Positions 43,755-58,019 of a DNA stretch of 64,000 bases are shown here, one piece after another. The notes under the pieces were generated by a model. The model searched no databases. It was not told the DNA's origin and was given only the letters and a program-made list of their open reading frames with translations. Made by a program: the position numbers and the translations under genes. Each line of letters begins with the position of its first letter. Position 1 is the first letter of the stretch. The DNA is from a virus: IMG/VR virus record IMGVR_UViG_3300025781_000011, positions 1 through 64,000 of that record. The stretch is one strand, 5' to 3'.

Positions 43755-45416
43755 ATGATGTCATCGATTCGAGTTGTAAAACGTAGCGGAGCAAAAGTGC
43801 CGTTAGATGTTACTAAATGGCAAAATCAGATCACCAAGGTCTGCACGGGCATAGCTGACGTTAGTCAATCAATGATAGAAATCAAAGCACAACCACATTT
43901 TTATGATGGTATCAGCACCAGAGAAATAGATGAAATAACCCTACGTGCTATAGTTGATCTAATCGATATAGAATCTAATCCAGATATCGGACATACCAAT
44001 TATCAATTTGTAGCCGGCAATCAACGACTTGGTATGTTGCGTAAGGATGTCTACGGTCAGTATAATCCGCCTCACATATATGAAATTGTTAAACATAATG
44101 TGGAATTAGGATTATATACCCGAGATTTATTAGATTGGTACACAGTTGATGATTGGAATCGAATGAACGATATCCTTGATCATACCAAAGATGAAGCGTA
44201 CAGCTATGCAGCAATTGAACAATTAATTGAAAAATACTTGATACGTAATCGTGCCACTAAACAGATATACGAAACACCGCAGATTAGGTATATTGTAGCA
44301 GCCGCAACAGTGTTTCATAGAGAAGAACCTAGTCAAGCTAGAATGAAATATATTAAAGAATACTATAATGCTGCCTCAGACGGATTGTTTACTCTAGCTA
44401 CACCTGTGCTAGCAGGATTAGGAACACCAACTAAACAGTTCAGTAGTTGTGTTCTCATACGTGCTGACGATAATCTAGACAGTATTTTTGCTGCTGGCGA
44501 AATGATGGCCAAGTATGCAAGTAAACGAGCTGGTATCGGGTTAGAAATTGGTAGACTACGTCCCCTTGGTAGTCCAATTAGAGGCGGGGAGATTACACAT
44601 ACAGGTATGATTCCGTTCCTAAAGAAGTGGTTTGGTGATCTACGTAGCTGTTCACAAGGTGGTATTAGGAATTCCAGCTGTACTGTTTACTTCCCAATAT
44701 GGCACTATCAATTTGATGATTTGATTGTATTAAAAAATAATCAAGGTACTGAAGAAACTCGTGTACGTCATATGGATTATGCAGTAGTATTGAACGCATT
44801 CTTTTGGCGTCGCTTTAAGAACAAAGAAAATATCACATTCTTTGATCCGAACGAAGTACCAGATTTATTTGAAGCATTTTATGGAGATACGGAACTATTT
44901 GAAAACCTTTATGTTAAGTATGAAAAACGTAAAGATATACGCACTAAGACTATGAGTGCAGAAGAAGTATTTAAGGGCGGTATTTTAAAAGAACGTACTG
45001 ATACTGGTCGAATTTATTTGATGTATACTGATAATGTTCAGAATCAAGGACCGTTTGATCCCAAGGTACATCCAATTTACCAATCAAATCTCTGTTGTAT
45101 TACAGGCGATACTCGCGTAACCTTTTTACATAAAAGCGGGAAAATTGAAACAATGTCGGTTGCTAGTGCAGTAGAAAGATTTGAATTAGGCGGCCTTACT
45201 GAATCAAAGATTAAAAGTTTTAAGAATGACAAAGTAATATGGGCTGATATTTCAGGTGCAATGAAAACTAAAACAGTAACAGAACTTTATGAGATCACAG
45301 ATGAAAGTGGTAAGATTATCCAATGCACTGCTGATCATTTAATTTATACCAAAAATAGAGGTTATGTTAGAGCGGATGAACTTGTAGAAACGGACGAGTT
45401 ATGTATTGAAAACTGA
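43755..45416 (+). CDS. nrdA: Ribonucleotide reductase alpha, N-terminal extein fused to split intein N-half
   Basis: The first 447 residues are class Ia NrdA: an ATP-cone start (SIRVVKRSGAKVPLDVTKWQNQI), then RYIVAAATVF, the TLATPVL...FSSCVLI stretch with a redox-type Cys, and the dimer/active-site barrel up to PIYQSNLC. The last Cys corresponds to the thiyl-radical Cys439 of E. coli NrdA. At the next residue the frame enters an intein (CITGDTRV) and stops at 45414. ATG at 43755 or, with better spacing from GAGGT, 43758. An extended -10 (TGTTATAAT, 43685-43693) may drive it. Full enzyme requires trans-splicing with the protein at 46387. Confidence 0.92.
   Translation: MMSSIRVVKRSGAKVPLDVTKWQNQITKVCTGIADVSQSMIEIKAQPHFYDGISTREIDEITLRAIVDLIDIESNPDIGHTNYQFVAGNQRLGMLRKDVYGQYNPPHIYEIVKHNVELGLYTRDLLDWYTVDDWNRMNDILDHTKDEAYSYAAIEQLIEKYLIRNRATKQIYETPQIRYIVAAATVFHREEPSQARMKYIKEYYNAASDGLFTLATPVLAGLGTPTKQFSSCVLIRADDNLDSIFAAGEMMAKYASKRAGIGLEIGRLRPLGSPIRGGEITHTGMIPFLKKWFGDLRSCSQGGIRNSSCTVYFPIWHYQFDDLIVLKNNQGTEETRVRHMDYAVVLNAFFWRRFKNKENITFFDPNEVPDLFEAFYGDTELFENLYVKYEKRKDIRTKTMSAEEVFKGGILKERTDTGRIYLMYTDNVQNQGPFDPKVHPIYQSNLCCITGDTRVTFLHKSGKIETMSVASAVERFELGGLTESKIKSFKNDKVIWADISGAMKTKTVTELYEITDESGKIIQCTADHLIYTKNRGYVRADELVETDELCIEN
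45096..45413 (+). other. Split intein, N-terminal half (NrdA)
   Basis: A 106-aa Hint-fold half begins at Cys1 (CITGDTRV, block A) and contains block B as IIQCTADHLIYTKNRGYVRADEL with the T-x-x-H motif. It ends with TDELCIEN just before the stop. The partner half begins 970 bases downstream. No endonuclease domain is inside the intein protein; a separate HNH gene occupies the gap. Confidence 0.93.
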
Positions 45417-45448
45417 TTGCTAACATAAATACATATGGAGAAATTCAT

Positions 45449-46390
45449 ATGTATAAAAAGTTGTATAAAAATATTATTGATAATGCTAGAAAAGAGAATA
45501 GAATGAAGAATCAAGGAATATATTATGAAGTACATCATATTATTCCAGATTTTCTATTTAAAAACCGGAGGCGACCCGGACCTAAGGGACATTTAGATGG
45601 GAACCCAAACAGTTCTGATAACTTGGTTTTTCTAACATTTTCTGAACATTTAATAGCACATTATTATTTGTATGAAATATATAAAGATTCAAGATATGCA
45701 TATTCAGCTGGCTCAGCATTGCAATTCTTTTTTGTAAAAGCCACAGGGAATCATAAAAGACAGAAAAATTTATCAGAGATTGATAGTAATTTTTTGAAAG
45801 AGATGGAACACTTGCGTATGTTGGGAATCGAGAGTATTAGTAAAGCAAAAACTGGAAAAATGCCGGTTGTGGATGCACTAACTCGGAAAAAAATAGGTTC
45901 TGTGCCAATAGATCATCCGAAAGTATTATCCGGCGAATGGATTCACCATTGTAAAGGTCTTCCAGCAAAAACAGCAAATAGAAAGTCACAAGTAGGTTCA
46001 AATAACACTAATTATAAAGAGCTAACCCTTGAAAGACGAGAAAGATTATTAAATTGTGTAGTTAATTCTTGTCAAGACAGGTATTTAAAATTGTCACTAC
46101 TTACTTCTGCAATAAAAAAAGAATTTTCAGAGTTTAAAAAAATATCATTAGCTTGGATTTGGAATAATTATGATTCTGTGAATGATTTATTAAATGAAGT
46201 TAACTCAGTAAAAGGTACTCAAATTAAATATGATTCATATCATAGAAGCAATGCACAAAGAAAATTAGCATCTGCGCATTCTTCAAAACATCGTTGGTAC
46301 AATAATGGAGTGAAAAATATAAAAGTCACAAACGAAGCAGAATTTTGTAAACATAATCCAGATTTTAAATTAGGAAAATTAAAAATATGA
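45449..46390 (+). mobile_element. HNH homing endonuclease between the split-intein halves
   Basis: The 313-aa protein has an HNH core (YYEVHHIIPDFLFKNRRRPG...GNPNSSDNLVFLTFSEHLIAHYYL, residues 26-75). A central DNA-contact region (ADALTRKKIGSVPIDHPKVLSGEWIHH-like, about 140-170) and a terminal RWYNNGVKNIKVTNEAEFCKHNPDFKLGKLK module follow. The core closely resembles the amber-interrupted HNH gene at 38141. GGAG at 45436 is the ribosome site; its stop overlaps the start of the C-terminal nrdA fragment (ATGA), so the second half is translationally coupled to the mobile gene. Confidence 0.88.
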
Positions 46391-46488
46391 TCAAAATTAA
46401 AAAAATCAAAGTTAAACAAACTGACGTATACGACATTTCTGTTCCAGAAACAGAATGTTTTTTTGCTAACGATATATTGATTCATAAT
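46387..46488 (+). other. Split intein, C-terminal half (NrdA)
   Basis: A 34-aa segment from Met to Asn: MIKIKKIKVKQTDVYDISVP, then ETECFFANDILIHN. The penultimate His and terminal Asn, followed by Cys +1, are the residues needed for the branch-resolution and ligation steps. Confidence 0.93.
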
Positions 46489-47475
46489 TGTGAGATCACA
46501 CTACCTAACAAGCCGTTCAAGCGTTTAGATGATGCAGAAGGTCGTATTTCCCTATGTACACTTGGATCAATTAACTGGGGTGCATTCCGCAATCCAGAAG
46601 ACATGAGACGTGCTTGTAGAATTCTGCTTAGAAGCTTGAATAACATTTTAGATTATCAGGACTTCTTGAGTATCCAATCTAAATTATCAAATGACGAGAT
46701 ACGTCCGATTGGCATAGGTGTCACTAATCTAGCATACTTCTTAGCCAAGAGAGGATTGAAGTATGGTGATCCAGAATGCTTAGCAGAAGTAAAGACATTT
46801 ATAGAGCATCAGGCATTTTATTTAACTGAAGCAACAGTAGAGCTGGCAAAGGAACGCGGTCCTTGTTTAGATAGTGCTAAGACACGCTATGGCCAAGGCA
46901 CGTTTCCTTGGGAGTTAAGAGCAAATGGTGTTAATGAGCTTACAGACTTTACACCAGAACTTGACTGGGAATCATTAAGAAATGAAATAAAACAACACGG
47001 AGTACGTAATGCTACGCTGCTAGCAGTTGCTCCTGTTGAATCAAGTTCAGTTTGTATTAATTCAACAAATGGTATAGAAATGCCAATGAGTTTGATTGCT
47101 ACTAAAGAAAGCAAGGCTGCATCACTTACGCAAGTGGTTCCGGAATATCACAGACTCAAGAACAAGTATCAGTTGATGTGGGATCAAACAGACTGTATCG
47201 GATATTTGAAAACTGCTGCGGTGTTAGCTGCATATGTTGATCAGGCTATTTCAGTGAATACGTTTTATTCGCCTAAACATTTTCCAGATCGCAAAGTCCC
47301 AACCACATTGATAGCTAAAAATTTAATGCAGGCACATAAATGGGGATTGAAGACCTTGTATTATAGCCTAATGGATAAATCTGGGTCAAAAGTTGATGAC
47401 CTTGATCTAATTAAAGAACTGGCACCGATAGACTACAGTGACGATGATTCAGACTGCGAAGCTTGTAAGCTATAA
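46387..47475 (+). CDS. nrdA: Split intein C-half fused to ribonucleotide reductase alpha, C-terminal extein
   Basis: The first 34 residues are the intein C-half (VYDISVPETECFFANDILIHN, blocks F and G, ending His-Asn). They are followed by Cys +1 and the C-extein EITLPNKPFKRLDDAEG-ISLCTLGSINWGAF, which is the normal NrdA continuation with the second redox Cys (SLC). Later segments include RPIGIGVTNLAY, VAPVESSS and CINSTNGIEMPMS. The C-terminus carries a Cys pair region (DCEACKL) as in NrdA tails. The two exteins add up to about 775 aa, close to T4 NrdA (754). Confidence 0.92.
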   Translation: MIKIKKIKVKQTDVYDISVPETECFFANDILIHNCEITLPNKPFKRLDDAEGRISLCTLGSINWGAFRNPEDMRRACRILLRSLNNILDYQDFLSIQSKLSNDEIRPIGIGVTNLAYFLAKRGLKYGDPECLAEVKTFIEHQAFYLTEATVELAKERGPCLDSAKTRYGQGTFPWELRANGVNELTDFTPELDWESLRNEIKQHGVRNATLLAVAPVESSSVCINSTNGIEMPMSLIATKESKAASLTQVVPEYHRLKNKYQLMWDQTDCIGYLKTAAVLAAYVDQAISVNTFYSPKHFPDRKVPTTLIAKNLMQAHKWGLKTLYYSLMDKSGSKVDDLDLIKELAPIDYSDDDSDCEACKL

Positions 47476-52267: not shown

Positions 52268-52606
52268 ATGTTAATAGAAAAAGCTATCGAAGCCAATGAT
52301 GTTGTAACCATTAAGTTGGTTACTCAGGAAGAAATTGTTGCTAAATTTGTGTCACAAGATACCAATACAGTTACCATTCAAAAGCCAGTACTACTGAACG
52401 TGTCAATTGACGAAAAAACAGGAAGGCCTGGTATACAAATGCTCCCATTTTTTGTGCTGGGTGCTAATAGCGATTCAAAAATAACCTTAAAACATATTCA
52501 TATTATAACCATGCTTACAGCAGCTGATGAAGTTAAAAGTGGATATATCCACAACACGAGTGGTATTGCTGTACCAAGAGCAGGAGAAAAAGGTCTTATT
52601 GTATGA
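52268..52606 (+). CDS. Sm-like small protein
   Basis: The 112-aa protein (ATG at 52268 after AAGGA) opens with a helix (LIEKAIEA) and then a five-strand pattern (NDVVTIKLVTQEEIVAKFVSQDTNTVTIQKPVLLNV...GIQMLPFFVLGA...KITLKHIHIITML). This recalls the Sm/LSm beta-barrel: V-x-L, G/E-E-I, D-x-x-T-V-T-x-x-x-P. Similar proteins of unknown function occur in marine phages. Its stop overlaps the agmatinase start (ATGA). RNA binding is an attractive but unproven idea because structured RNAs are encoded nearby. Confidence 0.45.
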   Translation: MLIEKAIEANDVVTIKLVTQEEIVAKFVSQDTNTVTIQKPVLLNVSIDEKTGRPGIQMLPFFVLGANSDSKITLKHIHIITMLTAADEVKSGYIHNTSGIAVPRAGEKGLIV

Positions 52607-53619
52607 TATCTAAACCATTTCAAGGTTTACGTACATTTTGTAAAACATCCGACGATACAACAAAACGTTTTGCAGTTATAGGATTACCTAGCGATACTGC
52701 TACATCATATAGACCGGGTGCAAGATTTGCACCTGCTGCTATACGAGAATCAAGCATGATGCTAACGGATGGGTATCACCCTTATTTCAATGTCAACATT
52801 CGAGATCATACAGTGGATCTCGGCGATGCTGACATAACTGTCGGTAATACATTGAAAATGTTAGAACAAGTTGAAACAGTTACAAATAATGTATTAAATT
52901 GGAACAAGCATACAGTATTTCTGGGCGGTGATCACACAGTTACCATTGGAATACTACGTGCTATGAACAAGCGATATGGTAAGATAGCTGTTGTACATTT
53001 TGATGCACACTGTGATACATGGCGTACAAATTTTGATGAACCTGTTGGCCACGGAACTTGGTTGTATAATGCTATCACAGAAGAACTGGTTGATCCCACA
53101 AAGATTATTAGCATCGGAATACGAAGTCCTTCCGATAGTAAGTCCAGAAACTTTCTAGATCACCATGGTGGTACTACATTTACTGCTAGATATGCACAGA
53201 CTAACTTAATGGCCGTGATTTCAAACACAATTAAAATTATTGACCATACTCCGGTTTATCTTACATTCGATATTGATGCACTAGATCCTGCATATGCACC
53301 CGGTACCGGAACACCAGAAATTGGTGGACTATCCAGCATGTGGGTGTTAGAATGCTTGGAATATTTGGCTGGATTAAATTGGATAGGTATGGATCTAGTA
53401 GAGGTTTCACCTCCGTACGATCATGCTGAAATAACCAGTTTAGCTGCTGCTACCATTTGTTGGACTTATCTCAGCATGGTAATAGCCAAAAACCTACAAC
53501 AATCAACAGAAATCGACGATGTACACGACTGTGGTGCTGATGTAGATGACAATACAGATTTCCGTCCAGTTGAAAAACCCGCTGTTACAAGACCAACAGG
53601 ACCAACAGGTCCAAGTTGA
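52603..53619 (+). CDS. speB: Agmatinase/ureohydrolase
   Basis: The 338-aa protein has all manganese-ligand motifs of the ureohydrolase family: GGDHT (108-112), FDAHCD (133-138), DIDALDP (223-229) and a late Glu in DLVEVSPPYDHAE. The family hydrolyses agmatine or arginine to urea and an amine, and the overall form fits agmatinase, giving putrescine. Putrescine neutralises phage DNA and supports translation, so this is an auxiliary metabolic gene. The last 40 residues are an added low-complexity tail ending in RPTGPTGPS, unlike bacterial enzymes. Confidence 0.85.
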   Translation: MISKPFQGLRTFCKTSDDTTKRFAVIGLPSDTATSYRPGARFAPAAIRESSMMLTDGYHPYFNVNIRDHTVDLGDADITVGNTLKMLEQVETVTNNVLNWNKHTVFLGGDHTVTIGILRAMNKRYGKIAVVHFDAHCDTWRTNFDEPVGHGTWLYNAITEELVDPTKIISIGIRSPSDSKSRNFLDHHGGTTFTARYAQTNLMAVISNTIKIIDHTPVYLTFDIDALDPAYAPGTGTPEIGGLSSMWVLECLEYLAGLNWIGMDLVEVSPPYDHAEITSLAAATICWTYLSMVIAKNLQQSTEIDDVHDCGADVDDNTDFRPVEKPAVTRPTGPTGPS

Positions 53620-53643
53620 CAACTTAGATATTTGAAGTAATAG
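53616..53643 (+). promoter_or_regulatory. sigma70-like promoter for first RNA element
   Basis: TTGACA (53616-53621) overlaps the agmatinase stop, followed by a 16-base spacer and TAATAG (53638-53643). The transcript would begin near 53650, just before the hairpin region. Confidence 0.6.
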
Positions 53644-53649
53644 TTAAAC

Positions 53650-53775
53650 AGCCGGATACAGATATCCGGGACCTTCGCAAAGATACAATTCCGGAGGACT
53701 GAACAATTTATAGGGTTGATCTCCTATAATTCAGTCTGTGACGGTAAGTATCTTTGCAGAAGGCGATTCTGAGGG
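53650..53775 (+). ncRNA. Structured RNA candidate 1 / leader of the 62-aa gene
   Basis: Two stable structures follow the promoter. The first is a 7-bp tetraloop hairpin CCGGATA-CAGA-TATCCGG (53652-53669). The second is a long composite hairpin: GCAAAGATAC (53677-53686) pairs with GTATCTTTGC (53748-53757), GGACTGAA (53696-53703) with TTCAGTCT (53730-53737), and TTATAGG (53708-53714) with CCTATAA (53723-53729). The 62-aa gene starts 25 bases after it, so it may be a regulatory 5' leader or a small RNA. No known class was recognised. Confidence 0.55.
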
Positions 53776-53781
53776 TCCAAA

Positions 53782-53970
53782 ATGCAGAACGAAATTCGCG
53801 ATCAAAATGCACGTGATATTAATGCATTAATCAAATATGTCATGTGGTCTAAAGATAAAATTGCTGGTGGTGTCAGACAAGAACTAGCAATAGAAGCACT
53901 GTCTCGTATTGTGGATTATCCCATATCATTGATGAGATCCATTTCTGGCAAAGAAGACAGCGTTGATTGA
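53782..53970 (+). CDS. Small protein, unknown
   Basis: The 62-aa helical protein (EIRDQNARDINALIKYVMWSKDKIAGGVRQELAIEALSRIVDYPISLMRSISG) is preceded by GAGGG. Its stop overlaps the -35 box of the tmRNA promoter. It lies inside the RNA island and probably shares a transcript with the hairpin RNA upstream. No family recognised. Confidence 0.5.
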   Translation: MQNEIRDQNARDINALIKYVMWSKDKIAGGVRQELAIEALSRIVDYPISLMRSISGKEDSVD

Positions 53971-53996
53971 CAATTTAAAATAAGACACTATAAATA
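53967..53996 (+). promoter_or_regulatory. Overlapping sigma70-like and T4 late promoter for tmRNA
   Basis: TTGACA (53967-53972), a 16-base spacer and TATAAA (53989-53994) form a host-type promoter. The same -10 is part of an exact late octamer TATAAATA (53989-53996). The tmRNA could thus be transcribed both early and late. Confidence 0.72.
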
Positions 53997-54000
53997 AATT

Positions 54001-54325
54001 ACCATTGTTGATAGCAATGTAATAAAACGTTATGGACCCCGGGGCAGTACCGGGCTGATCTACCATAGTAACATTGTTTCCTAGGCTTAGCCCACGAAAT
54101 CGCCCTTTGCGGTTGGCAATGTTACTATGATGGGCCAGACATAGGATTAACAAGCGAATAAAGATTGAAGTAGATGGTCCGGCGAAAGCTTGGTTAATGC
54201 AATAAAACTAATAAATGCTAACGCATTTGCAAATGACAATACACCTGTTGTAGAGATGAAAATCGCTGCTTAAGGTTTAAGGTCTGCGGTCAGGGGAGAA
54301 CCGTATTAAACAATCTCCCTATTAC
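54001..54325 (+). ncRNA. ssrA: tmRNA, two-piece circularly permuted
   Basis: The acceptor piece comes first. T-arm CCCGG/CCGGG with a 7-base loop (54038-54054) leads to acceptor strand CTGATCT (54055-54061) and encoded ACCA (54062-54065). A 13-bp hairpin (CATAGTAACATTG, 54064-54076, with CAATGTTACTATG, 54117-54129) marks the removable spacer. The coding piece begins GGGCCAG (54132-54138), pairing with the acceptor strand with one mismatch and with G-U at the third pair, the alanine identity element. Then come a D-like GGATTAAC, the tag ANDNTPVVEMKIAA plus TAA (54229-54273) and an H-type pseudoknot (54286-54320). Permuted tmRNAs are typical of alphaproteobacteria. Confidence 0.92.
54229..54273 (+). 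other. tmRNA tag reading frame
   Basis: From resume codon GCA the frame reads ANDNTPVVEMKIAA then TAA. Tags starting ANDN and ending in a hydrophobic-Ala-Ala are the norm in alphaproteobacteria and mark stalled proteins for ClpXP-type proteolysis. The upstream in-frame GCT and GCA codons leave a few residues of uncertainty in the exact resume point. Confidence 0.88.
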
Positions 54326-54407
54326 TTTAAAAATCACAACAAGAGTTGACTTTTTTTGAACTATAAGTAAATATTGACGAACACTATTTGTAGTTGGAGT
54401 AACGTCC

Positions 54408-54602
54408 ATGTTGACAGCAAGAAATATAATAATAAAAGAAGTCATAGAATTTGTGGTAATCGAAGGCGTTATGTTCCTGGTTAAACGTGTGTTCAAAATC
54501 AACAAAAGACGTAAGACTGTTACAGCAATATTGAAGATAATTTCCAACATCGGCGTTATGGTTGCATCACGATATGTGACTGCTGCTGTTGCAATTATCT
54601 AA
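54408..54602 (+). CDS. Small membrane protein with two hydrophobic segments
   Basis: The 64-aa protein, preceded by GGAG, has two hydrophobic stretches (IIIKEVIEFVVIEGVMFLV and AILKIISNIGVMVASRYVTAAVAII) separated by a basic loop (KRVFKINKRRK). This hairpin topology with a positive loop suits a small inner-membrane protein. Whether it affects lysis or transport cannot be told. Confidence 0.5.
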   Translation: MLTARNIIIKEVIEFVVIEGVMFLVKRVFKINKRRKTVTAILKIISNIGVMVASRYVTAAVAII

Positions 54603-54609
54603 CCAACGG

Positions 54610-54637
54610 TTGCAATTTTAAACTTATCTATTATAAT
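54610..54637 (+). promoter_or_regulatory. sigma70-like promoter for structured RNA 2
   Basis: TTGCAA (54610-54615), a 16-base spacer and perfect TATAAT (54632-54637). Expected start near 54644, exactly where the structured RNA begins. Confidence 0.7.
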
Positions 54638-54643
54638 GATCTT

Positions 54644-54850
54644 GTGGGTCTGGAGGAAAGACGAGTCACAGATCCTAATCGTAGAGGAACAGCACGACCC
54701 AAATTTAGATCACCCGTAACAGGGGAGTAGCAGGTGCCAGGTAGGACAACTGGCTGAAAGATCTAATATTGGGAATCTGCGGTAGCCGGTGGACTACACT
54801 AGTAAGAGTCATTAGGACTGCGGATTTTAAACAGGTTACGATACCCACAC
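54644..54850 (+). ncRNA. Structured RNA candidate 2 (about 205 nt, unknown class)
   Basis: No protein frame with a ribosome site is present. The ends pair: GTGGGT (54645-54650) with ACCCAC (54843-54848). A second long-range helix joins TCCTAAT (54673-54679) and ATTAGGA (54811-54817). Local hairpins include GCCAG/CTGGC (54737-54755) and a CCC/GGG loop near 54712-54725. Purine-rich single-stranded stretches (GGAGGAAAG, GAGGAACAG) lie between. It has its own promoter and a late octamer follows it. GAGGAAAG and GTGCCAGGTA faintly recall RNase P RNA, but the other conserved regions are missing. Confidence 0.6.
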
Positions 54851-54884
54851 TTTAAACTTGACAGTTAATGCCACTGAATGGTAC

Positions 54885-54892
54885 TATAAATA
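54885..54892 (+). promoter_or_regulatory. T4-type late promoter, with overlapping sigma70-like elements
   Basis: Exact TATAAATA. TTGACA at 54858-54863 with TACTAT at 54882-54887 (18-base spacer) suggests dual early/late use. About 180 AT-rich bases follow without a supported gene before a terminator. The topoisomerase gene starts at 55189. Confidence 0.55.
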
Positions 54893-55070
54893 ACATTGCT
54901 TGGTATTAACCAGACAAACAGTTGATATCAAGTGATGTTTGATGAAACTTATTGTAGCGTAAATTATTTTTGTATTATTCAATCAGCCACGTGTATGCGT
55001 TGAATTGATTGAAATTTAACTTAATTATTTTTGTAAAAACTCGTAATATATTAACCTTATTAACTCGAAA
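54893..55070 (+). other. AT-rich non-coding stretch
   Basis: This interval holds only very short unsupported frames. It includes a TTGATATCAA palindrome near 54921 and A/T runs. It lies between the last promoter of the RNA island and a terminator, so it may be a short transcript or an unrecognised origin-like spacer. Nothing firm can be assigned. Confidence 0.4.
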
Positions 55071-55110
55071 GAAGCGATGTTGTACAGTTACAGCATCGCT
55101 TCAATCTTTT
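55071..55110 (+). terminator. Intrinsic terminator closing the RNA island
   Basis: A 13-bp stem GAAGCGATGTTGT / ACAGCATCGCTTC (one G-U) with loop ACAGTT is followed by AATCTTTTC. Confidence 0.75.
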
Positions 55111-55188
55111 CAGATGACAAATAAATTAATCGAAGTTAAAGTACTATATTGTACAAGTTACTGATAAAAGGTATAACTAACAACTGTC

Positions 55189-57075
55189 ATGTCAGAAGAA
55201 ATTATCAAACTCACAGATTACCAACATCATCGCAAACGTACAGAAATGTACCTGGGCAGTAGAACTGCTCATACACAAAACATAGTACATTGGAATGGAA
55301 CCAAATTACTGCCAATGGATCTAACCTGGACACCTGCTGTTTATTGTGCATTTAGAGAGCTACTAGATAATGCACTGGACGAGGTAATCGGTCACAAGAA
55401 AGGTTCCAAGATTGACATAACCTTTGAACCAAAAGAAATGGTGTTCTCAGTTACTGATGATGGTCGCGGTATTCCAATTGACTGGGATGAGAATGAACGT
55501 ATACACAAAGCTACACTGGCACTAACACAAGCCCGAGCTGGTCGTAACTTTGGTGATCGTCAAGAAGTACGTGGTACCAACGGCATTGGTGCAAGCACGG
55601 TTGTAAACTGCTCTGAATGGTTTCATTTAGAAATACATCGTGACGGCAAGAAGTTTATACAAGAGTTCAAAGAAGGATCCGACCTATTTCCAGAATTAAT
55701 AATCAATGAACCAAAGATTACCAAGAACGGTGGTCATAGCGGAACACAAGTTAAATTTAAATTAAGCAAGACTGTGTTTAAAAATGCCAAGTTACCTTTG
55801 GCATTTATGCAAGCACGTATACATGAAATAGCCGCTAACCATCCCAGGGTTAAATTTACGTTCAATGGCGAACGTATTATGGTCAAGCACTCAATTGAAC
55901 GCACATTCTTTAATGACAAAGAAGTTATTAAACTAAGCGTCGATGATAAGAACTTTAATAGTGCGTTCTATCTTGTGAGTAACTTTGCCAAAGACGGCGA
56001 GTATATACATACCACTGTAAATGATATTCCTGCGTTCAATGGCGGTACTCATATTGATACATTCAAGAGAATGTTCTATAGCGGGCTTATTCGAGCACTA
56101 GAACGTGAAAGCAAACGTCGAGGATTAACTCCTAATCGGTCTGACATCAGCGAGGGGTTGTTAATTTATAACGTGACGACTATGTTTTCTCCAGACTTTG
56201 ACTCACAATCTAAATCCAGACTCATTAATGAGAATGTTGACAGTTATATCAAAGCATACTTCGATAATGAGGAAGTGTTTAAGGACATTATCAAAAAGCA
56301 CAAGCCGTGGATTGACGAAATCTACGCAAGGTGTGCAGCTAGAACACAAAAACGAGATGACGCAGACTTGGCCAAGATTGGTCGCAAGCTCATGCGTAAC
56401 AAAGTACCAAAATTACTAGATGCCAATGGTAAAGACAGATCCACTTGTATTCTTATTATTACAGAAGGTGATTCTGCTAAAGGAATGATAAGTGCTGTAC
56501 GTGATCCAGAAGTACATGGCGCTTTACCCCTACGTGGTAAGATTCTAAACGTACGTGGCGAAGCACCCAAGGACATTGTAGAAAATCAAATCATACAGGA
56601 TCTAATGACCAGTATTGGTTGTGTGTTAGGCCAACGAGCTGAACGCAAAGATCTACGCTACGGTAAAGTATACTTGGCAGCGGATCAGGATCCAGACGGT
56701 GCTAACATTACTGCATTGTTGATCAACTTCTTTTATTTGTATTGGCCGGAGTTGTTTGATCCCAAACAGGAACCCTACTTTTATGCATTTCAAACTCCTT
56801 TTATTATTCAGGAGAAGGCCAAGAAACGTCACTACTGGTATGCTCACAACTATCACGAGTATGATCCTAAGGATTGGAAAAACTGTCCAAAGCCGACCAG
56901 AGCCAAGGGCCTGGGTAGTCTTGAAGAAGAAGATTGGATACACAGTTTAAAGGTACCTCAGTTGATTCCTATCACAGATGATGGTAAATTAGGTGAGGCA
57001 CTGGATTTGATATTTAATTCAGCAAGGGCTGATAATCGCAAGGAGTGGATTAGCTTAGATAATAAAATTAATTAA
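55189..57075 (+). CDS. 39: DNA topoisomerase II large subunit (gp39/gp60-like, GyrB-type)
   Basis: The 628-aa protein has an intact GHKL ATPase domain with ELLDNALDE (57-65), TDDGRGIP (89-96) and VRGTNGIGAS. The transducer domain and TOPRIM region follow with LIITEGDSAKGM and AADQDPDGANI. In T4 the equivalent is split into genes 39 and 60 by a mobile gene; here it is one continuous gene and the mobile gene lies after it. It ends with the KGLGSLEEEDW tail. With gp52 it relaxes DNA during replication. The ATG has only a weak, distant AAAAGG. Confidence 0.95.
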   Translation: MSEEIIKLTDYQHHRKRTEMYLGSRTAHTQNIVHWNGTKLLPMDLTWTPAVYCAFRELLDNALDEVIGHKKGSKIDITFEPKEMVFSVTDDGRGIPIDWDENERIHKATLALTQARAGRNFGDRQEVRGTNGIGASTVVNCSEWFHLEIHRDGKKFIQEFKEGSDLFPELIINEPKITKNGGHSGTQVKFKLSKTVFKNAKLPLAFMQARIHEIAANHPRVKFTFNGERIMVKHSIERTFFNDKEVIKLSVDDKNFNSAFYLVSNFAKDGEYIHTTVNDIPAFNGGTHIDTFKRMFYSGLIRALERESKRRGLTPNRSDISEGLLIYNVTTMFSPDFDSQSKSRLINENVDSYIKAYFDNEEVFKDIIKKHKPWIDEIYARCAARTQKRDDADLAKIGRKLMRNKVPKLLDANGKDRSTCILIITEGDSAKGMISAVRDPEVHGALPLRGKILNVRGEAPKDIVENQIIQDLMTSIGCVLGQRAERKDLRYGKVYLAADQDPDGANITALLINFFYLYWPELFDPKQEPYFYAFQTPFIIQEKAKKRHYWYAHNYHEYDPKDWKNCPKPTRAKGLGSLEEEDWIHSLKVPQLIPITDDGKLGEALDLIFNSARADNRKEWISLDNKIN

Positions 57076-57134
57076 AAATAAAATTTATCGCAGTGCAAAT
57101 ATATATTATAATTATACTAGCGATAAGGAAAATC

Positions 57135-58019
57135 ATGAAACAAGTTTATAAAATTACAAATATTAAGAATAACAAGTCTTACATTGGAATAGTCATAGCA
57201 AGAGATAAAGATTATCTTAAACGATTTCAGGAGCATATGACCGGTAAAGGCGGAGTTTATTTATGGAATGAGTTAAAATCAGGTAGCGCAACTGTTGAAG
57301 ATTTTGTAGTCGAGTTGTTAGAAGAAGGCAATCAGGATGATTTATATTTTAAAACTCAGGAGGAATTTTACATAGAATATTTAGGAACATTATGGCCCAA
57401 TGGTTATAACGGTAATAAAGGCAATTATATTGTAAAAACACCTGAGATATTACAAAAGGCTCGCAAAACTCGGTTTCAAAATCATCAAGCAGGACTACAT
57501 AAGTCAACTGGACGATCAGGTATGGCAATTTATAGATATCCAGACGGTAGCATTAAAAAATTATCTATAAATCATCCAGATGTTCTAAATAATACAGTAA
57601 AACATATTAATTATAATCCTGAATGTAAAACACGATTACTAGAACAAGAGATAGCAGAACAAAAAGAAAGAAACAATGGTTTAACAGATAAACAAGTTGC
57701 ATGGAAGGTAAAAATAGCTAAGTTGGCTAAACAATATCCGAATTTAGAATCCTGGCAACACGGCAGAGAGAAATTTAAAGAACGAATGGCAATGAAAGAT
57801 TTTACTGAAAAAGAAAAAGAACTGTACTATGAACGACGCTCTAAAATTGTAAAAGCAAATTGGGACTCTATGACACCTGAACAGCGACTTGAAAAATGTG
57901 GTCCTGGATTGCGGGCTCGAAATGCTCGTAAGGTATGCCCACACTGCGGAATAGAAACAAATTTAGGAAATTATACAAGATGGCACGGAGATAATTGTAA
58001 AAAGGCATCAGCAACATGA
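57135..58019 (+). mobile_element. GIY-YIG homing endonuclease between topoisomerase genes
   Basis: The 294-aa protein (ATG after AAGGA at 57126) starts with VYKITNIKNNKSYIGIV, the GIY-YIG pair in the form VYK...SYIG. The domain continues (LKRFQEHMTGKGGVYLWNELKSG) with a catalytic-type Glu in TQEEFYIEYLG. A Lys-rich DNA-binding middle follows. The C-terminal zinc-finger-like C-P-H-C-G...H-x-x-x-C reads VCPHCGIETNLGNYTRWHGDNCKKA. Its stop overlaps the gp52 start (ATGA). Homing genes in topoisomerase genes are known from T4-type phages. Confidence 0.88.

What the first reader, a model, noticed from the sequence alone, without database searches (positions are those of the whole stretch)
54001..54325. 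Phage-encoded two-piece (circularly permuted) tmRNA with tag ANDNTPVVEMKIAA
Seen: the acceptor half precedes the coding half, with encoded CCA, 7-base T-loop, a G-U third acceptor pair, a 13-bp removable hairpin, a complete tag frame ending in TAA and an H-type pseudoknot. Known: permuted tmRNAs are typical of alphaproteobacteria, and G3-U70 is the alanine identity element. Inference: the phage supplies its own ribosome-rescue RNA, perhaps with a tag that changes the fate of tagged proteins. It also points to an alphaproteobacterial host. A non-canonical T-loop (GGCAGTA) and a C-A mismatch in the acceptor stem are worth attention.
Basis: partly seen in the sequence, partly recalled or inferred. 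Interest (0 to 1): 0.92.

Follow-up and report, generated by a model that had tools for sequence, protein, structure and literature searches.

The report
Jumbo-phage two-piece tmRNA gene
A fragment of a giant phage genome carries its own split ribosome-rescue RNA (a circularly permuted tmRNA), a known kind of phage gene, but this copy alone has lost the nucleotide that normally binds the helper protein SmpB, so whether it still works is open.

Summary
Window 54001-54323 matches two Rfam permuted-tmRNA models above their curated cut-offs (alpha_tmRNA 61.9 bits, tmRNA_permuted 65 bits), although ARAGORN misses it. The same gene lies just upstream of the phage gyrase gene in 33 of 34 related viral contigs that reach that site. 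There it has compensatory base changes in every main helix, an open tag frame and a conserved promoter. The closest named phages are alphaproteobacterial jumbo phages (Sinorhizobium phage Phosso, Agrobacterium phage Atu_ph07).

The tag probably starts four codons earlier (ANAFANDNTPVVEMKIAA). The C-A acceptor mismatch is real and exceptional.

Phage two-piece tmRNAs are already published (53 by 2021), so this is a new member of a known kind. Best reading: a phage trans-translation RNA that depends on host SmpB and AlaRS, with this copy divergent and perhaps weakened. A lead from kin: they also encode ClpX with RKN instead of RKH in the tag-recognition loop.

The parts
53967..53996 (+). Promoter-like element TTGACA-N16-TATAAATA directly upstream of the RNA
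   Evidence: Only such match in the window (0.28 expected by chance). TTGAC is present in 18 of 18 aligned copies and ATAAATA in 16 of 18. Function inferred.
54001..54065 (+). Acceptor piece: P2 strand, T-arm (loop GGCAGTA), acceptor 3' strand CTGATCT, discriminator A, encoded CCA
   Evidence: Rfam matches; T-stem paired in all 18 copies apart from one pair in L146 that is probably misregistered, with several pair types
54066..54131 (+). Intervening segment removed from the mature RNA; 13-bp hairpin 54064-54076/54117-54129
   Evidence: Sequence; fold. Length 66 nt, within the 2-264 nt range of 112 distinct phage copies. Removal inferred from known two-piece tmRNAs.
54132..54138 (+). Acceptor 5' strand GGGCCAG: G1-U72, G3-U70, C4-A69 mismatch
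   Evidence: 6 of 7 pairs here, 7 of 7 in the other 111; the only G1-U72
54147..54151 (+). D-loop motif TTAAC in place of TCGAC (C18 to U, G19 to A; 54148-54149)
   Evidence: Only copy of 112 without G19. G19 contacts SmpB and G19C blocks SmpB binding (PMC8363625).
54164..54178 (+). Coding-piece side of helix P2 (AUUG 54164-54167 with 54015-54018; AUGGU 54174-54178 with 54001-54005)
   Evidence: Compensatory changes against the nearest relative L124 and other kin
54217..54273 (+). Tag reading frame, probable resume codon GCU 54217, ANAFANDNTPVVEMKIAA, stop TAA 54271-54273 (alternative resume codon GCA 54229)
   Evidence: Alignment with 17 kin: UAAxU precedes the first codon; A at -4 rule (PMC2481249)
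54285..54319 (+). H-type pseudoknot after the stop codon (S1 54285-54290/54300-54305; S2 54294-54299/54314-54319)
   Evidence: S2 is fully paired with a sequence unlike any kin; equivalent stems in kin

Best explanation
The stretch is a phage-encoded circularly permuted (two-piece) tmRNA gene, one member of a syntenic family in a clade of alphaproteobacterial jumbo myophages. It is transcribed from its own promoter as one precursor. Host RNase P and 3' exonucleases cut out the hairpin-closed intervening segment, leaving an acceptor piece and a tag-coding piece held together by the acceptor stem and helix P2. Host AlaRS charges it with alanine (G3-U70, A73). With host SmpB and EF-Tu it enters stalled ribosomes, adds a tag ending in KIAA and frees the ribosome; the tagged peptide goes to ClpXP-type proteases. 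Shown here: family membership, synteny, covariation, frame conservation, promoter conservation, absence of a detectable phage SmpB in kin. Inferred: transcription, processing, charging, tagging. This particular copy has lost conserved features (G19, the Watson-Crick pairs 1-72 and 4-69, one P2 pair), so it may work weakly or with an unusual host SmpB.
For: Two Rfam models above cut-off. Homologous gene upstream of gyrase in 33 of 34 kin contigs that reach the site: 30 by RF01849, one of them below cut-off, plus L146 and L133 by RF04321 and L135, whose extracted stretch is identical to L133. Compensatory changes in P2, T-stem, acceptor and the last pseudoknot over 18 copies. Open tag frame in all 18 aligned copies plus five more read by hand, all but one ending in AA. 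Conserved promoter. Phosso carries one too (113 bits) and AP-J-162 is reported to have one tmRNA (PMC11242549). SmpB absent from 19 records searched, including 453 kb and 518 kb kin.
Against: The copy in the window lacks G19, and G19C abolishes SmpB binding (PMC8363625). It has an acceptor mismatch and G1-U72, each unique among 112 copies. On columns conserved in 14 outgroup copies its lineage changed 9 times against 1 in sister L124 (p 0.02, uncorrected, partly in an uncertain alignment region; gyrase 6 against 2). One relative (L128) with 3.4 kb upstream has no detectable copy. No RNA or infection data.
Confidence: 0.75

Rival explanations
1. A recently decaying tmRNA: the gene family is functional in the clade, but this phage's copy has lost SmpB binding and is drifting, with the host tmRNA doing the work.
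For: Loss of G19, G1-U72, C4-A69, A-A in P2, and a lineage excess of changes at conserved sites. Kin with ClpX can live without a tmRNA (Atu_ph07).
Against: Tag frame open with an in-frame 12-nt insertion. The last pseudoknot, both main P2 helices and the T-stem are fully paired with their own compensatory sequence. The 13-bp processing hairpin is perfect, and promoter, A73, G3-U70 and CCA are intact.
Confidence: 0.2
2. A decoy or inhibitor: an alanylatable or SmpB-titrating RNA that interferes with host trans-translation rather than performing it.
For: A tmRNA-like-domain-only molecule from mycobacteriophage DS6A is the precedent; similar molecules strongly inhibit tmRNA (PMC4131195; PMC11915505).
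Against: Full tag frame, resume signal and pseudoknot are kept, and kin conserve ANDN and the AA end. Loss of G19 would weaken, not strengthen, SmpB titration.
Confidence: 0.05
3. Chance resemblance or a host ssrA fragment picked up by integration or misassembly.
For: Host ssrA is a known prophage integration site and fragments of it occur in prophages (PMC9004378).
Against: Complete gene, fixed position in kin, identical in contigs L122 and L123, no near match in plasmid or phage records, covariance scores far above cut-off.
Confidence: 0.01

Closest known systems
Alphaproteobacterial two-piece tmRNA (Rfam RF01849; first shown in Caulobacter)
   Same: Permuted order, T-loop GGCRGUA, G3-U70, encoded CCA, hairpin-closed intervening segment, ANDN...AA tag, pseudoknot after the stop codon
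   Different: 62 bits against 143-285 bits in 18 alphaproteobacterial genomes (genomes chosen by a tmRNA pattern); D-loop lacks G19; acceptor mismatch; tag extended by AFAN
Two-piece tmRNAs of marine phages (Melnitz, Pelagibacter phage Mosig; PMC9004378)
   Same: Phage-encoded tmRNA; in Melnitz a two-piece tmRNA of the alpha type immediately downstream of a promoter
   Different: No riboswitch detected next to it here; unrelated jumbo-phage clade; different neighbourhood (gyrase)
tmRNA of Sinorhizobium jumbo phages AP-J-162 and Phosso
   Same: Same phage lineage by gyrase; a permuted tmRNA in Phosso and one reported tmRNA in AP-J-162
   Different: In Phosso it lies about 30 kb from gyrase, has a 410-nt intervening segment and normal G19
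Mycobacteriophage and Bacillus phage G tmRNAs
   Same: Phage-encoded trans-translation RNAs; phage G also has a ClpX
   Different: Phage G's ClpX has a normal RKH loop; to my knowledge these are one-piece genes in phages of other bacterial phyla (not tested here)

Membership tests
Permuted (two-piece) tmRNA gene | Covariance-model score above curated cut-off | tested here: met
   RF01849 61.9 (50), RF04321 65 (47)
Permuted (two-piece) tmRNA gene | Acceptor/T half encoded before the tag half, joined by base pairing of two pieces | tested here: met
   P2 and T-stem fully paired; one P2a pair is A-A
Permuted (two-piece) tmRNA gene | Alanine identity: G3-U70, discriminator A, CCA | tested here: met
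   54134-54059, A54062, CCA 54063-54065
Permuted (two-piece) tmRNA gene | Seven-pair acceptor stem | tested here: not met
   6 of 7, C4-A69 mismatch; the other 111 copies have 7 of 7. Not by itself a defining failure
Permuted (two-piece) tmRNA gene | D-loop C18-G19 SmpB contact | tested here: not met
   U-A here, CG in 110 and TG in 1 of the other 111. Bears on activity rather than gene identity
Permuted (two-piece) tmRNA gene | Tag frame with resume signal, stop codon and hydrophobic-AA end | tested here: met
Permuted (two-piece) tmRNA gene | Processing into two RNA pieces, alanylation, tagging | not testable with these tools
   Needs RNA and biochemical data
Phage-encoded tmRNA | Lies in a phage genome and is conserved in related phages | tested here: met
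   Terminase, tail, SSB, UvsX, gyrase around it; 33 of 34 kin contigs
Prophage-borne or island fragment of host ssrA | Partial gene at an integration site | tested here: not met
   Complete gene, fixed syntenic site

The most novel reading that the evidence does not exclude
This jumbo-phage lineage runs its own tag-and-destroy circuit. Phage tmRNAs write tags, and a phage ClpX whose ssrA-reading RKH loop has become RKN (H230N, in all clade members examined) reads or ignores them differently from host ClpX. The window's copy, without G19 and with an extended tag, would be a version adapted to altered partners.
Probability: 0.12. Interest if true: 0.75.

Novelty: new member of a known kind. Interest (0 to 1): 0.42.

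Why it matters
It adds a syntenic, fast-evolving family of about twenty phage tmRNAs with diverse tags to a gene type known mostly from marine phages. If the G19-less copy works, it is a natural test of what SmpB really needs. If it does not, it shows a phage ribosome-rescue gene in decay. The pairing with a phage ClpX that has an altered tag-reading loop makes it directly testable whether phages retune trans-translation.

Tried and rejected
1. Very short intervening segments (2-9 nt in L155, L148, L150, L158, L133, L014 and others) as a phage novelty: rejected, because over 100 cellular stretches, mostly alphaproteobacterial (SAR11, SAR116, Devosia and others), also match with 1-9 nt.
2. Non-canonical T-loop as an oddity: rejected.
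3. Near DNA matches in named phage and plasmid records: none.
4. A phage-encoded SmpB to explain the D-loop change: none in 19 records; the window's own record is a fragment.
5. A glutamine riboswitch next to the tmRNA as in Melnitz: nothing at E up to 1 in 53600-55200.
6. TATAAATA as a phage late promoter: 9 sites in the window, 8.9 expected, so the 8-mer alone is uninformative.
7. Fold energy of the precursor is only modestly better than shuffles (z -2.3); the evidence rests on covariation, not on this.
8. Several apparent departures in L146 and L156 are alignment offsets (one search read).

Full report
What is there. The window belongs to a 65,173-base linear virus record. Around the feature are terminase, tail tube and tail spike, gp32-like SSB, UvsX, helicases, primase, ribonucleotide reductase, endolysin and both gyrase subunits. 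At 53963-54323 two Rfam models for permuted tmRNA match above their curated cut-offs; nothing else in 53600-55200 reaches E of 1. ARAGORN, a program widely used in phage annotation, misses it, so such genes are probably under-counted.

Anatomy, read from the sequence. The acceptor piece runs from about 54001 to CCA at 54063-54065. The intervening segment is 54066-54131. The coding piece begins at G1, 54132. A perfect 13-bp hairpin closes the intervening segment and includes the CA of the mature CCA. The pieces pair through the acceptor stem and helix P2 (54001-54005 with 54174-54178; 54015-54018 with 54164-54167). The tag frame ends at TAA 54271-54273 and an H-type pseudoknot follows (54285-54319).

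Conservation. The gyrase large subunit was used to fetch 40 viral contigs. RF01849 finds a match near gyrase in 30 of them, 29 over the cut-off. RF04321 adds L146 and L133, and L135 is identical to L133 over the stretch extracted. Six of the other seven contigs are cut off before the site; only L128, with 3.4 kb upstream, has no detectable copy. So 33 of 34 informative contigs carry it, although several are near-duplicates. In 18 aligned copies the longest P2 helix, T-stem, acceptor and the first stem of the last pseudoknot are paired almost throughout, with up to five pair types at one position. All 18 have an open tag frame at the homologous position, as do five more read by hand, with (A/V/D)NDN near the start; all end in AA except L126, which ends LAV. 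A promoter-like TTGAC...ATAAATA precedes the gene in nearly all; in the window it is the only such site, with 0.28 expected by chance.

The T-loop GGCAGTA is ordinary: 22 of 112 distinct phage copies have it and 81 have GGCGGTA (most were fetched with a T-arm pattern that admits only these two, but the pattern itself is the alpha consensus). The tag start: in kin the resume codon directly follows UAAxU or a close variant, and the homologous codon here is GCU 54217, giving ANAFANDNTPVVEMKIAA. The E. coli work makes the A four bases upstream of the resume codon decisive (PMC2481249).

What is unusual. Among 112 distinct phage permuted tmRNAs, this is the only one without G19 (TTAAC for TCGAC), the only one with G1-U72, and the only one with an acceptor mismatch (hits with fewer than seven acceptor pairs were otherwise excluded, but those had no tmRNA-type T-loop). 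It also has the only A-A at a P2 pair kept by all 17 kin. G19 packs on SmpB throughout trans-translation, and G19C blocks binding (PMC8363625); the effect of G19A is not known to me. Compared with its sister L124, the window changed nine conserved columns against one (p 0.02, uncorrected, some in a doubtful alignment region); gyrase shows six against two. Against simple decay, the last pseudoknot, P2 and T-stem have been rebuilt with new but complementary sequences and the tag insertion is in frame.

Relatives and host. Closest named gyrases are from Sinorhizobium phage Phosso (55%) and Agrobacterium phage Atu_ph07 (51%), 469 and 490 kb jumbo phages. Phosso has a permuted tmRNA at 349596-350198 that is not in its annotation. 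AP-J-162 is reported to have one, Atu_ph07 none (PMC11242549). An alphaproteobacterial host is therefore likely but not proven.

Partners. No SmpB was found in 19 records, the window's own among them, so host SmpB must serve. Twelve of 19 carry full-length ClpX, in the metagenomic kin some 14-24 kb from the tmRNA; ClpP occurs in four of 13. The window's record ends too early to tell. All clade ClpX examined keep the zinc domain, GYVG and an IGF or VGF ClpP-docking motif, but read RKN where 15 alphaproteobacterial ClpX and three other giant-phage ClpX read RKH. In E. coli, H230A raises KM for ssrA substrates about a hundredfold (PMC7652416). This is a lead, not a demonstrated link. In the held papers I found no report tying phage ClpX to phage tmRNA, but phage G has both genes, and Atu_ph07 has ClpX without tmRNA.

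Novelty. Phage two-piece tmRNAs are published: a 2021 survey of phage genomes found 402 with tmRNA, holding 133 unique structures, of which 53 were two-piece (PMC9004378). The gene here is a new member of that kind. The missing G19 and the extended tag are variant features of unknown effect.

Noticed in passing
L289-L296, L420, L421 (ClpX genes of kin, Phosso, Atu_ph07): All ClpX of this jumbo-phage clade have RKN instead of RKH in the ssrA-recognition loop (E. coli H230), while phage G, Lak and another giant phage keep RKH. Atu_ph07 also has S for pore-2 T199.
   Followed up: partly
window 43755-47475: nrdA is split by a candidate split intein: the first ORF ends with an intein N-fragment starting CITGDTRV, an HNH endonuclease ORF (45449-46390) lies between, and the second ORF starts with an intein C-fragment ending FFANDILIHN|C. 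Both halves match Pfam Intein_splicing weakly.
   Followed up: partly
window 52603-53619: A complete arginase-family enzyme (PF00491, E 2.8e-86) encoded by the phage just upstream of the tmRNA; no PHROG family matches it.
   Followed up: no
L126 5216-5592: Phage tmRNA whose tag ends LAV (VNDNVAPYEMSLAV) instead of the AA end that is most important for ClpXP recognition in E. coli.
   Followed up: no
L156 5331-5659: Phage tmRNA copy without an obvious encoded CCA (CTCTCCAAAAATACA) and a 22-nt intervening hairpin; would need CCA addition.
   Followed up: no
L155, L148, L150, L158, L133: Intervening segments of only 2-5 nt close the acceptor stem into a small hairpin; how RNase P and exonucleases open it is unclear. 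Also common in cellular alphaproteobacteria.
   Followed up: partly
L281 (Phosso 349596-350198): Permuted tmRNA with a 410-nt intervening segment, not annotated in GenBank PV764938.
   Followed up: yes
window 57093-58019: A homing endonuclease ORF (PHROG matches, one of them GIY-YIG) sits between the two gyrase subunit genes.
   Followed up: no
L149, L155, L158: An extra stretch of about 50 nt is inserted in the coding piece between the first structured region and the tag, in phages with tiny intervening segments.
   Followed up: no
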